From the NCBI RefSeq assembly GCF_040802235.1, contig NC_133157.1, positions 90,568,001 through 90,632,000 on the forward strand: 64,000 nt of DNA. Direction: 5' to 3'. Below, one piece after another: positions 6,185 to 14,210 of the stretch. Under the pieces are notes generated by a model. It did no database searches and was not told the origin of the DNA. It saw only the letters and a program-made list of their open reading frames with translations. The first letter of the stretch is position 1. The number at the start of each line of letters is the position of its first letter. This DNA is from Manis javanica. Its lineage: Eukaryota; Chordata; Mammalia; Pholidota; Manidae. A program made the position numbers and the translations under genes.

Positions 6185-6518
6185 TGTCGCGTGCCCTGTC
6201 CTCGCCGGCAAGAACAGCACGCAACAACAGCAGGATTCTTCTGCAGAAAGCTTTATTCTTCAGCTCTTTGTGAAACAAATGAGTTGGGCAGGACCCAGAG
6301 GGGAAGGAGAGGCTTGCTTATATAGTTCTCATGCTCTGACCTGGTTGGTGCGGCTCCATATGCCTTATTAGCATAACCATTTGGTGGGTCTCATTGGTCC
6401 TTATGCCAAGGCGCAATTAGCATGTAGTTTAGTGGTGTGGGATGATTTGTCATTAGGAAGTTCGGGGCCTTCCGGCTGCCCTGCATGGGGCGCTATTTTC
6501 TGAGCGCGGCTGCCAACA
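6185..6518 (-). repeat. 3' LTR of the provirus
   Basis: The LTR is 334 bp, starting TGTTGGCAGC and ending GGGCACGCGACA on the minus strand, so it has canonical TG...CA ends. All 334 positions match the 5' LTR by direct reading. U3 holds a CCAAT box (6393-6397), two ATGCTAAT octamer-like motifs and a CCGGAAG Ets-like motif. TATATAA lies at 6318-6324 and AATAAA at 6252-6257, so U3, R and U5 are all recognisable. The polypurine tract abuts its U3 end directly. The left junction to host DNA is at 6184/6185. Confidence 0.97.
6252..6257 (-). terminator. Polyadenylation signal AATAAA in the 3' LTR
   Basis: AATAAA stands on the minus strand about 67 nt downstream of the TATA box. Transcripts entering the 3' LTR would be cleaved some 10-30 nt further on, which sets the R/U5 border near 6225-6240. 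The identical signal sits at 13944-13949 in the 5' LTR. Confidence 0.85.
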
Positions 6519-6532
6519 TCTCCCCCTTTTTT
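6519..6532 (-). promoter_or_regulatory. Polypurine tract (plus-strand primer)
   Basis: The minus strand reads AAAAAAGGGGGAGA, all purine, ending exactly at the TG that opens the 3' LTR. This is the position and composition needed for the RNase H-resistant primer of plus-strand DNA synthesis. The precise abutment supports the LTR boundary. Confidence 0.93.
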
Positions 6533-6864
6533 GTCTAACAGAAGCTCAAGGCGGAACTTGCCAGCAGAGGCGGAGACAGAGGCCTGACCTCCATCATACT
6601 TCCTGATGCCCCCTTTTTGGAGAGGGGTTCTGGGCATCTACCCCTATGCAGTCAGGCATGCCTCTCAGAGGGGTCCAAGACCTCTTGCAGTGCTTTGCCT
6701 CGCATCCTCTGGCTGGCGTTGGGACCGCTTGGTACAAAGGGTTTGGACCCTTTTTCTCAACCCTCTTGCACCATGAGCTTCTTAAAGAAAGCTGTGATTA
6801 AGCATTGAGGTACTCGGGCCTGGTGCAGTGCCACATGGGCTCAGGGTGCAAGAGCTACCTCAAG
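6533..6864 (-). other. Proviral 3' untranslated stretch between env and polypurine tract
   Basis: About 330 nt lie between the env stop and the polypurine tract. No recognisable coding domain is present. A second purine block, AAAAAGGGGG on the minus strand, lies at 6609-6618. A 78-codon minus-strand frame (6401-6637) runs from here into U3 but resembles nothing I know. The stretch could house RNA export or packaging signals, as in related elements, but none was identified by sequence. Confidence 0.6.
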
Positions 6865-8640
6865 CTAAAGCCGAGCTTCCTTCTTAAGCATGTTGAGCCA
6901 CACTTGGGGAGAGGCGCCAACGTCTATCGCCATTAGGGCTTGAGCAAGGATCACCTTGTCCTGCTTATGTTGGTTGCGGAGTCTGCATAACAACCAGAGT
7001 AAGAGCATGAGACCTCCAAGCAGGAACACGCCCATCCCAGCCATGCCCGCCCACTCCTTGACGTGGGAGAGAGCTCTGAGGAACCAGGAAGAGAGTCCTT
7101 CCGCTACGGAGATATCTAGACGGGTGGAGTTGATGTGGATAATTTCTCGCCGCAGCTCTTCTAGTGTCCCATCGAAGTCTTGGGACCAGTTTCCTGAAAG
7201 ATACTGGGACAGGTCTCGTGACAGATTAGCTGCCCGTGTAAAATTTTTATATTGAATGCTAGTGATGCAGAGGGCACGATATTTCCGCTCACATCCCAAT
7301 TGGGCCATTTGCCAGAGCACCTCCATTTGTTCCTCCACGAGATCTATGCGTTGATTGAGGATCATTATTCCTCCTTTCAGTTTGCCATCAAGTGTGGACT
7401 GTTGGTCCAGGGCAGAAGCTACTGAGGCTGCAAGGTTATTGAGCTCTGTAGCCGATTTGATGGAGGTGTCTAAAGCTATACCAGCGGCGGTGGCTGCGAC
7501 CGCGGTCGCGGAGATCAGGAGCACTATGGCGGCTGTAACACCGAAATCGCGCCTTTCTCGAAACAGAGTCATGGTGTTAGGGGCGTCTACGGGAACAGGG
7601 ACCCAACGGGGGATGCGGACTACCAAAGCATTGGTAAAGTTACGCGCATCCCAACACTGAGACAGAAAGCAGGTTTCATTGGAGCAGGAGTCAAAGCTAC
7701 TATTGGATAAGATAAACAGAAATGGGGGGTATACGCATACTGGAGAAGGTGGAAAAAGGGAATTAGGTGACTCTGGACCTGATTTTGCTGAACACGTGTA
7801 GTTCTCGTTGTTATGGGTCATGATCATGTTCCAGTGTGCGCGCATGTGGTTATTCTCGCACCAAAAGGTGATATTTTTTACACCGATTCCCCCACCCTGG
7901 AGGGCGGAAAAGGGGGAGAGGTCGGTACACGAGCCATTGACTCCACACAGCATCCATTTATGGAAGGGGTTCATGCTCAGCTGCTGACGAAACTCGCCTT
8001 CGAGCACCTTTACTGGCCACCAAGCCTCATTGGCTGGCCGTCCCTCCATATCTGGGGAGATGGTAAACTCCTGCCTCTCAGTTGCCCACGTTACTACAGT
8101 TGACTGACAGTCAGTCCAGGGCCACAGCTCTCCCTCATAGTCGCCCACACAATGGGAGGCATATTTGGGTTGACGAGGCCTGTCGGTGGAATTGTTCCTG
8201 GGAGAGTGTACAAATGTGCCATTGATCCAGAGAACCATCTGGTGGATAGTCATGTTCTTATAGGACGGGCTCCCTTCCTTATTAGGCCCTTCAAATTTAG
8301 CTGACATAACGGGGAGGCTACTGGCCTCTAGAATTATGTCACTGAACCATCCGTATTTCCTCCGTTTCAGGGAGATACAGCCAGCTAGATTCTGAGTGGT
8401 GAAGCATAATGACCCATTAGTTACGAAGGATCGGTTTTCTCCCAGGGGAGCTACTAGGGTGTCTTTAACTAAGTAGGGCAAGTTCATACTAGTATTGGTA
8501 GTGAAAAAGCGCGGAAAAACGGCTGCATTGAAACGGACAGGCATAGGCTTAGGAAAGGCAGACAGGATTCCCCATCTCAATACTCCCTGAGTCGGGGTCT
8601 CCAGTGTCAGGAGCAGGGTCAGGAGGTACAGCGAAGTCAT
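6865..8640 (-). CDS. Envelope glycoprotein (Env), intact
   Basis: This 591-residue frame encodes the SU-TM surface glycoprotein precursor that mediates receptor binding and membrane fusion. A hydrophobic leader (about residues 1-19) is followed by a cysteine-rich SU with about a dozen N-x-S/T sites. A consensus furin site RERR sits at 361-364, then a hydrophobic Ala-rich fusion peptide (365-387) and a heptad-like segment (395-445). The TM cysteine motif is C-x7-C (450-458), without the extra adjacent Cys of gammaretroviral CX6CC. Four N-glycosylation sites follow, then a membrane span (about 535-553) and a tail of about 38 residues. These traits point to a betaretrovirus-type Env. The frame overlaps pol by 92 nt. 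A candidate splice acceptor lies 61 nt upstream with no intervening ATG, supporting this start. The frame shows no truncation; receptor and activity are unknown. Confidence 0.95.
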   Translation of the reverse strand: MTSLYLLTLLLTLETPTQGVLRWGILSAFPKPMPVRFNAAVFPRFFTTNTSMNLPYLVKDTLVAPLGENRSFVTNGSLCFTTQNLAGCISLKRRKYGWFSDIILEASSLPVMSAKFEGPNKEGSPSYKNMTIHQMVLWINGTFVHSPRNNSTDRPRQPKYASHCVGDYEGELWPWTDCQSTVVTWATERQEFTISPDMEGRPANEAWWPVKVLEGEFRQQLSMNPFHKWMLCGVNGSCTDLSPFSALQGGGIGVKNITFWCENNHMRAHWNMIMTHNNENYTCSAKSGPESPNSLFPPSPVCVYPPFLFILSNSSFDSCSNETCFLSQCWDARNFTNALVVRIPRWVPVPVDAPNTMTLFRERRDFGVTAAIVLLISATAVAATAAGIALDTSIKSATELNNLAASVASALDQQSTLDGKLKGGIMILNQRIDLVEEQMEVLWQMAQLGCERKYRALCITSIQYKNFTRAANLSRDLSQYLSGNWSQDFDGTLEELRREIIHINSTRLDISVAEGLSSWFLRALSHVKEWAGMAGMGVFLLGGLMLLLWLLCRLRNQHKQDKVILAQALMAIDVGASPQVWLNMLKKEARL

Positions 8641-13706: not shown

Positions 13707-13856
13707 GGTGCCTCCTTATTTACAGAGAACCATCAACCATCATCCTAAAAAGCAGGGGCCTCTCGGAACTTACCCCTCCGGGCTTTCTTCTGACCTGCAG
13801 TTCTGAATCCTCTCCAGATGTCTGAAGGGTCCTCCCTGTGCCGGTGATGTTCTGGT
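13707..13856 (-). promoter_or_regulatory. Proviral leader with candidate major splice donor
   Basis: The 150-nt stretch between primer site and gag ATG contains GGGGTAAGT on the minus strand, with GTAAGT at 13768-13773. This is a full match to the intron side of a 5' splice consensus. Joined to the acceptor near 8702 it would yield an env mRNA. Packaging signals are expected here, but no specific structure was identified. Confidence 0.65.
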
Positions 13857-13874
13857 TCCCGGGTTTCGGCACCA
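13857..13874 (-). promoter_or_regulatory. Primer binding site for tRNA-Phe
   Basis: The minus strand reads TGGTGCCGAAACCCGGGA, an 18-nt match to the complement of the 3' end of mammalian tRNA-Phe(GAA) including CCA. It begins 2 nt after the 5' LTR. Phe priming is characteristic of rodent IAP elements, whereas MMTV- and HML-type betaretroviruses generally use lysine tRNAs. The tRNA identity is from knowledge of the tRNA sequence, not from a search. Confidence 0.92.
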
Positions 13875-13876
13875 CT

Positions 13877-14210
13877 TGTCGCGTGCCCTGTCCTCGCCGG
13901 CAAGAACAGCACGCAACAACAGCAGGATTCTTCTGCAGAAAGCTTTATTCTTCAGCTCTTTGTGAAACAAATGAGTTGGGCAGGACCCAGAGGGGAAGGA
14001 GAGGCTTGCTTATATAGTTCTCATGCTCTGACCTGGTTGGTGCGGCTCCATATGCCTTATTAGCATAACCATTTGGTGGGTCTCATTGGTCCTTATGCCA
14101 AGGCGCAATTAGCATGTAGTTTAGTGGTGTGGGATGATTTGTCATTAGGAAGTTCGGGGCCTTCCGGCTGCCCTGCATGGGGCGCTATTTTCTGAGCGCG
14201 GCTGCCAACA
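13877..14210 (-). repeat. 5' LTR of the provirus
   Basis: The LTR is 334 bp and identical to the 3' LTR at every position I compared (constant offset of 7692). It is the copy expected to drive transcription: CCAAT, TATA, and an inferred start about 25-30 nt after TATA, near 13986-13991. The polyadenylation signal at 13944-13949 lies within R. The outer junction to host DNA is 14210/14211. Confidence 0.97.
14010..14089 (-). promoter_or_regulatory. LTR core promoter (CCAAT and TATA boxes)
   Basis: On the minus strand a CCAAT box (14085-14089, within GGACCAATGAG) precedes TATATAA (14010-14016) by about 70 nt. ATGCTAAT octamer-like motifs flank the CCAAT region. Together they form a conventional RNA polymerase II promoter for the provirus. 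Activity is not shown by sequence; such LTRs are usually methylated. Confidence 0.8.

What the first reader, a model, noticed from the sequence alone, without database searches (positions are those of the whole stretch)
6185..14210. Complete, apparently intact and very young endogenous retrovirus
Both 334-bp LTRs are identical by direct reading. Gag, pro, pol and env are all free of stops and indels, and primer site, frameshift sites and polypurine tract are all intact. Everything else in the window that derives from retroelements is decayed. Identical LTRs mean recent insertion (at a usual mammalian neutral rate near 2e-9 per site per year, one LTR difference would be expected per roughly 0.7 My) or recent conversion. 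Such a locus may be polymorphic in the species and may still be expressed.
Basis: partly seen in the sequence, partly recalled or inferred. Interest (0 to 1): 0.88.

Follow-up and report, generated by a model that had tools for sequence, protein, structure and literature searches.

The report
Young, coding-intact IAPE-like provirus, mismatched flanks
A complete and recent retrovirus copy, of a kind known from mice, sits in a mammalian chromosome with all its genes readable, but the host DNA on its two sides lacks the short matching repeat that a clean insertion leaves, so its history is not simple.

Summary
A full provirus lies on the minus strand at 6185-14210: LTRs identical at 334 of 334 sites, gag, pro, pol and env frames without internal stops, two in-frame -1 slippery heptamers, PBS and PPT. 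CpG observed/expected is 0.48 inside against 0.18-0.23 in the host, further support for youth.

(1) It is class II, betaretrovirus-like, with a beta-type Env (TM motif CX7C) and a primer site fitting tRNA-Phe (tRNA end recalled), the primer of IAP/IAPE, where betaretroviruses are said to use tRNA-Lys. Best read as IAPE-like, a known kind; no IAP sequence could be aligned. (2) It has no target-site duplication: junction hexamers match at 0 of 6, and nothing from 4 to 3000 bp fits. Identical LTRs therefore do not by themselves date one clean insertion. Likeliest causes: ectopic recombination between near-identical young copies, an assembly join through them, or uncoordinated integration.

Host unidentified (a mammal). 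Copy number, polymorphism and expression could not be tested. Ordinary as a kind; the junctions deserve long reads.

The parts
13877..14210 (-). 5' LTR, 334 bp, starts TG and ends CA; TATA-like box at LTR position 195, AATAAA at 262
13857..13874 (-). Primer binding site, 18 nt, 2 nt from the LTR; complementary to tRNA-Phe (tRNA 3' end recalled)
   Evidence: IAP and IAPE use tRNA-Phe: passages of PMC7472051
11949..13706 (-). gag, 585 aa: p10 matrix, capsid p24 N and C domains, two zinc knuckles, PPPY motif, Gly at position 2
12090..12096 (-). gag-pro -1 slippery heptamer A AAA AAC in the gag frame
11176..12126 (-). pro frame: dUTPase, aspartic protease with DTGAD, G-patch
11182..11188 (-). pro-pol -1 slippery heptamer G GGT TTT in the pro frame
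8549..11200 (-). pol frame: RT with YMDD, thumb, RNase H, integrase zinc domain, core with D,D(35)E, DNA-binding domain
6865..8640 (-). env, 591 aa: SU, RERR furin-type site at 361-364, hydrophobic fusion-peptide region 365-391, CX7C loop (C450, C458), hydrophobic anchor region 530-556; overlaps the 3' end of pol
6519..6532 (-). Polypurine tract directly before the 3' LTR
6185..6518 (-). 3' LTR, identical to the 5' LTR (334 of 334)
14211..14216 (-). Host hexamer at the 5' junction; does not match the 3' junction hexamer (0 of 6)
6179..6184 (-). Host hexamer at the 3' junction; no target-site duplication

Best explanation
A recently acquired, coding-complete class II provirus of the IAPE kind: a betaretrovirus-like retrovirus that keeps its beta-type envelope gene and primes reverse transcription with tRNA-Phe. 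Shown: complete anatomy, identical LTRs, open genes in the three-frame gag/pro/pol plus env layout, two in-frame slippery sites, two-cysteine TM loop, no target-site duplication. Inferred: transcription from the 5' LTR, Gag-Pro-Pol made by two -1 frameshifts, Env from a spliced mRNA, budding at the plasma membrane (Gly2, PPPY). Also inferred: the duplication is missing because this copy's two flanks come from two different integration sites of the same young family, either by ectopic recombination in the germ line or by an assembly join through near-identical 8-kb copies. Confidence: about 0.85 for a young IAPE-like provirus, about 0.55 for the two-locus origin of the flanks. The figure given is for the first part.
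For: LTRs 334/334 identical; no internal stop in gag, pro, pol or env; domains; slippery sites. tRNA-Phe PBS as in IAP and IAPE, against tRNA-Lys variants stated for all betaretroviruses. Cysteines after the furin-type site only at 450, 458 and 552: the beta type described for IAPE and type B viruses. Best solved match of the TM is an entry labelled Endogenous retrovirus group K member 7, 37.5 bits. Pol: entry 7sr6 'Polymerase' 537.5 bits, entry 7usf 'Integrase' 271.1 bits; that these are HERV-K and MMTV is recalled. CpG o/e 0.48 inside, 0.177 left and 0.227 right host. Flanks 0 of 6, best register identity 0.40 over k = 4-3000. Mismatched TSDs imply post-insertion conversion or rearrangement (PMC6407205 passage); five HERV-K proviruses are said to have undergone ectopic recombination (PMC4422153 passage).
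Against: No IAP or IAPE sequence could be aligned: the protein database is off, viral contigs gave no relative of Pol, Env or Gag and the genome search did not complete. Membership rests on primer, envelope type and layout. No second copy is seen in the window, so a multi-copy young family, needed for the two-locus origin, is not shown. The two host bases before the 5' LTR equal the two internal bases between PPT and 3' LTR, which fits uncoordinated integration slightly better (chance 1 in 16).
Confidence: 0.85

Rival explanations
1. Uncoordinated integration: one viral end was joined by integrase and the other by host repair, with loss of target DNA, so one real insertion event has no duplication. 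LTR identity would then still date the insertion.
For: The 5' flank ends with the same two bases that lie between PPT and 3' LTR inside the provirus, as an unprocessed U3 end would leave. Abnormal duplications occur: of 15 XMRV sites, 13 had 4 bp, one 5 bp and one 273 bp (PMC2857682 passage). One bat betaretrovirus-like ERV with intact LTRs, PvERV-betaB, also had no identifiable duplication (PMC3621094 passage; cause not given there).
Against: Two shared bases are expected by chance 1 in 16. Both LTR ends are canonical (TG and CA). No duplication in register was found from 4 to 3000 bp; a target deletion cannot be seen without an empty allele. The same paper counts correct duplications at 15 of 15 HIV-1, 8 of 8 MLV and 7 of 7 spleen necrosis virus sites, so such events are rare.
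Confidence: 0.28
2. Assembly chimera only: in the animal the two flanks belong to two different loci, each with a normal provirus, and the assembler joined them through near-identical copies.
For: An 8-kb element with identical LTRs is long enough for short-read or noisy-read assemblies to misjoin (established knowledge); no TSD.
Against: No read data are available here, so there is no direct sign of a join; no second copy is visible in the window.
Confidence: 0.3
3. An older provirus whose LTRs were made identical by recent gene conversion.
For: LTR conversion is documented for HERV-K loci (PMC4422153 passages). It would also leave LTR identity misleading.
Against: All four genes are open, with about one disabling hit expected per 0.49 My at 2.2e-9 (assumed indel share), and CpG is kept inside the element. 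An older TSD would be expected to match partly, not 0 of 6.
Confidence: 0.07
4. A typical JSRV- or MMTV-type betaretrovirus and not an IAPE relative; the tRNA-Phe primer site was gained independently.
For: dUTPase in pro, p10 matrix, beta-type Env and the Pol matches do not separate these groups.
Against: Betaretroviruses are stated to use tRNA-Lys variants (PMC3621094 passage), IAP/IAPE tRNA-Phe (PMC7472051 passages).
Confidence: 0.15

Closest known systems
IAPE (intracisternal A-type particle elements with an envelope), mouse
   Same: tRNA-Phe primer site, beta-type env kept, furin-type site R,X,R/K,R and CX6-7C in TM (PMC3197615 passage), class II Gag-Pro-Pol layout, LTR length near the about 350 bp given for IAP (PMC3556122 passage)
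   Different: No B1 or ID head was found in 64 kb and one B2 head only at 4 edits, so probably not a murid locus; sequence distance to mouse IAPE could not be measured; no target-site duplication
JSRV/MMTV-type betaretroviruses
   Same: dUTPase in pro, beta-type Env, three-frame gag/pro/pol; a short LTR as in JSRV-like viruses (about 300 bases)
   Different: They use tRNA-Lys variants, here tRNA-Phe; MMTV's long LTR with sag is not there by length (sag itself was not sought)
HERV-K (HML-2)
   Same: Best solved match of RT (7sr6, recalled as HERV-K) and of Env TM
   Different: Long LTRs and tRNA-Lys primer (recalled); Env TM match only 37.5 bits
MEBrv clades 1 and 5 of Australian marsupials
   Same: Class II ERVs reported with intact ORFs and identical LTRs, read there as recent (PMC11334065 passages)
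   Different: Marsupial hosts; MEBrv 1 has a gammaretrovirus-like env; no sequence comparison made here

Membership tests
Retroviral provirus | Paired LTRs TG...CA, PBS, PPT, gag-pro-pol-env | tested here: met
Retroviral provirus | 4-6 bp target-site duplication | tested here: not met
   Junction matches 1 of 4, 2 of 5, 0 of 6; no duplication of 4-3000 bp in register. Taken as a statement on the locus's history, not on the element's kind
Betaretrovirus-like class II | p10 matrix, dUTPase in pro, G-patch, two -1 frameshifts (list partly recalled; dUTPase) | tested here: met
Genus Betaretrovirus in the strict sense | tRNA-Lys primer site | tested here: not met
   PBS fits tRNA-Phe (tRNA recalled; rule from PMC3621094 passage)
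IAP/IAPE | tRNA-Phe primer site | tested here: met
   PMC7472051 passages; tRNA 3' end recalled
IAPE | beta-type env present and open | tested here: met
   definition in PMC3758190 passages
IAP/IAPE | Clusters with IAP in Pol and Gag trees | not tested
   no IAP sequence obtainable: and seven unanswered genome-search runs
Env-less IAP retrotransposon | env lost | tested here: not met
   env open, 591 aa
Type D betaretrovirus (MPMV) | gamma-type Env with a three-cysteine TM motif | tested here: not met
   only C450, C458, C552 after the furin-type site; types as in PMC3758190 passages

The most novel reading that the evidence does not exclude
An env-bearing IAPE-type retrovirus outside the mouse lineage that is so young that its copies are near-identical and already recombine between loci: the germ-line invasion that precedes an env-less IAP expansion, caught at its start.
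Probability: 0.15. Interest if true: 0.62.

Novelty: new member of a known kind. Interest (0 to 1): 0.38.

Why it matters
Mouse IAPE is described as the progenitor of the env-less IAP elements (PMC3197615 passages), the type case of the env-less 'superspreaders' (PMC4643047 passages). A young env-bearing relative in another mammal would let that transition be followed from its start. The missing target-site duplication matters in practice: a provirus like this should not be dated by LTR identity, or scored as one insertion in a population screen, before its junctions have been read on single long reads.

Tried and rejected
13 of 19 gave no hit; six (B2, one carnivore SINE, two artiodactyl heads, MIR core, DIP) gave one or two hits at 3-4 edits, read as chance except the MIR core. 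The heads may be misremembered. A search for pol III A/B box pairs gave none. One search (four recalled consensus sequences) found MIR at four places and an L1-like end at one by nhmmer (blastn: one each), none for 7SL/Alu/B1 or the carnivore SINE; the same BLAST step had printed nothing and was rerun with default scores. Of eight host frames searched in Pfam, one (31688-32002) matched RVT_1 at E 0.01, below the cut-off, and seven gave nothing. Host remains 'a mammal, probably not a murid'.

Other copies of the family in the window: blastn gave ten matches of 13-26 nt (E 0.018 to 0.88) and tblastn one of 29 residues (E 0.48), read as chance; a tblastx step in the same script printed no result and may not have run, since that program is not among the installed ones. 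RNA structure: z -0.17 and -1.49 behind the two slippery sites, -1.06 and -1.37 for two pieces between env and LTR; not convincing, and pseudoknots are not modelled. Rfam at gathering scores: 0 matches. ARAGORN: 0 genes. Env against solved structures at E up to 1: 13 matches, of which 11 are fusion glycoproteins F0 with E 0.092 or more, read as shared fusion-protein features.

Considered and rejected: type D (gamma Env), because of the cysteine pattern; env-less IAP, because env is open; old provirus with converted LTRs, because of intact genes and CpG.

Papers: PMC3112705 whole text (an abstract); passages only of PMC11334065, PMC3197615, PMC3621094, PMC6407205, PMC4422153, PMC7472051, PMC3758190, PMC4102558, PMC4643047, PMC6466679, PMC3556122, PMC2857682, PMC9410886; search listings otherwise. 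Two papers were not held. Whether this locus is in print cannot be said: the host is unknown, and I recognised no description of it in the listings (19 of 20 papers; 25 of 37; 20 of 28; 15 of 362; 15 of 23; 15 of 158).
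Full report
Observation. The provirus is real and its limits are exact. On the minus strand it runs from a 5' LTR at 14210-13877 to a 3' LTR at 6518-6185; the LTRs are identical at 334 of 334 positions, and this pair is the one direct-repeat family reported for the 64 kb at seed 14 and minimum 60 nt. Between them lie gag (13706-11949, 585 aa), a pro frame open from 12126 to 11176, a pol frame open from 11200 to 8549, and env (8640-6865, 591 aa), none with an internal stop. 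Pfam finds p10 matrix, both capsid domains and two zinc knuckles in Gag; dUTPase, protease and G-patch in Pro; RT, thumb, RNase H and three integrase domains in Pol; and a GP41-type TM in Env (33.9 bits, cut-off 29.6). Motifs are in place: DTGAD, YMDD, an integrase D,D(35)E, both CCHC knuckles, PPPY.

Expression signals. A AAA AAC at 12096 and G GGT TTT at 11188 sit in the zero frames of gag and pro, so the two -1 shifts lead into the next gene. Simple folding shows no strong structure behind them (z -0.17 and -1.49), which neither supports nor excludes pseudoknots. The LTR has a TATA-like box at 195 and AATAAA at 262. The 18-nt primer site begins 2 nt after the LTR and the polypurine tract abuts the 3' LTR.

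What kind it is. Among solved structures, Pol is nearest to entry 7sr6 'Polymerase' (537.5 bits) and entry 7usf 'Integrase' (271.1 bits); I recall these as HERV-K RT and MMTV integrase. Gag is nearest to 8c9m 'Gag protein' (177.8 bits), then 6hwi (131.8) and a HERV-K capsid (88.4). Two entries match Env at E up to 0.001: an Endogenous retrovirus group K member 7 entry (37.5 bits) and a 'Transmembrane protein, Fibritin' construct (28.1 bits), both over the TM. After the furin-type site, Env has cysteines only at 450, 458 and 552, so the loop is CX7C without a third cysteine: the beta type (PMC3758190 passages). The primer site fits the 3' end of tRNA-Phe, which I recall and did not fetch. A bat paper states that all betaretroviruses use lysine tRNA variants (PMC3621094 passage), while a review states that IAP uses phenylalanine tRNA and lists IAPE with tRNA-Phe (PMC7472051 passages). 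Class II layout, tRNA-Phe and a kept beta-type env together are the profile of IAPE. An abstract reports IAP-like ERVs in 17 of 36 mammalian genomes (PMC3112705), so one in a further mammal is no surprise. No alignment to an IAP or IAPE sequence could be made (seven busy calls to the genome search).

Age. At 2.2e-9 per site per year, zero LTR differences give a 95% upper age of 2.0 My; zero disabling hits in 6822 coding bases give 1.5 My, and both together 0.85 My. With 1e-9 and 4.5e-9 the joint limits are 1.9 and 0.4 My (rates, transition bias and indel share are assumptions). CpG observed/expected is 0.48 in the provirus, 0.177 in the left and 0.227 in the right host sequence; six 8-kb blocks of the right host range from 0.114 to 0.275. 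This does not depend on LTR identity, though the virus may simply have started with more CpG.

The missing duplication. A retroviral insertion leaves a 4-6 bp repeat of host DNA, 6 bp for MMTV (PMC9410886 passages). Here the junctions match at 1 of 4, 2 of 5 and 0 of 6 positions; with shifts of up to 3 bases the best hexamer match is 2 of 6, and no duplication from 4 to 3000 bp in register exceeds 40% identity. Random pairs of host hexamers match at 0 of 6 in 18% of 200,000 draws, so the junctions look like unrelated DNA. An element this young should not have lost a duplication by point mutation. Mismatched duplications are read in the literature as conversion or rearrangement (PMC6407205 passage), and ectopic recombination is reported for five HERV-K proviruses (PMC4422153 passage). 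One bat ERV with intact LTRs likewise had no duplication (PMC3621094 passage). Three causes remain: ectopic recombination between two near-identical proviruses, an assembly join through such copies, or uncoordinated integration with loss of target DNA. For the last there is one weak hint: the two host bases before the 5' LTR equal the two bases between PPT and 3' LTR (1 in 16 by chance). Against it, correct duplications are counted at 15 of 15 HIV-1, 8 of 8 MLV, 7 of 7 spleen necrosis virus and 13 of 15 XMRV sites (PMC2857682 passages). If the flanks come from two loci, the LTRs come from two proviruses, and their identity speaks for a very young family and not for the age of one insertion.

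Surroundings. The rest of the window holds what look like old repeats: MIR-like stretches at four places (recalled consensus), two internal pairs of 64% and 70% identity between 30 and 40 kb that I read by eye as L1 remnants, and one weak RT fragment there. No further trace of this retrovirus family was found, apart from short chance-level matches. The host is a mammal by these repeats and by the restriction of beta-type Env to mammals; B1 and ID heads gave no hit and B2 one at 4 edits, which argues against a murid within the limits of recalled consensus sequences.

Verdict. Observation confirmed, interpretation partly supported. A young, coding-complete, IAPE-like provirus is a new member of a known kind; intact ERVs with identical LTRs are reported elsewhere (for example marsupials, PMC11334065 passages). 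The part that needs follow-up is the absent target-site duplication.

Noticed in passing
window 30178-31345 and 39007-40149; 36487-36643 and 38602-38749: Two pairs of stretches 64% and 70% identical to each other, in an AT-rich region with frames that look L1-like by eye and are full of stops; probably old L1 fragments.
   Followed up: partly
window 43845-44013, 1842-2039, 44718-44840, 26445-26507: MIR-like stretches (recalled consensus); no young SINE family was recognised in 64 kb, which is unusual for many mammals.
   Followed up: partly
window 6519-6864: About 330 nt between env stop and 3' LTR without a gene; a place where an RNA export element could lie, but folding gives z of only -1.06 and -1.37 in the two pieces tested.
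   Followed up: partly
window 8649-8580: Env opens, by eye, with a short signal of about 19 residues (the hydrophobicity scan did not flag it), and an in-frame stop lies just upstream, so no long Rec/Rem-like signal peptide is encoded in this exon.
   Followed up: no
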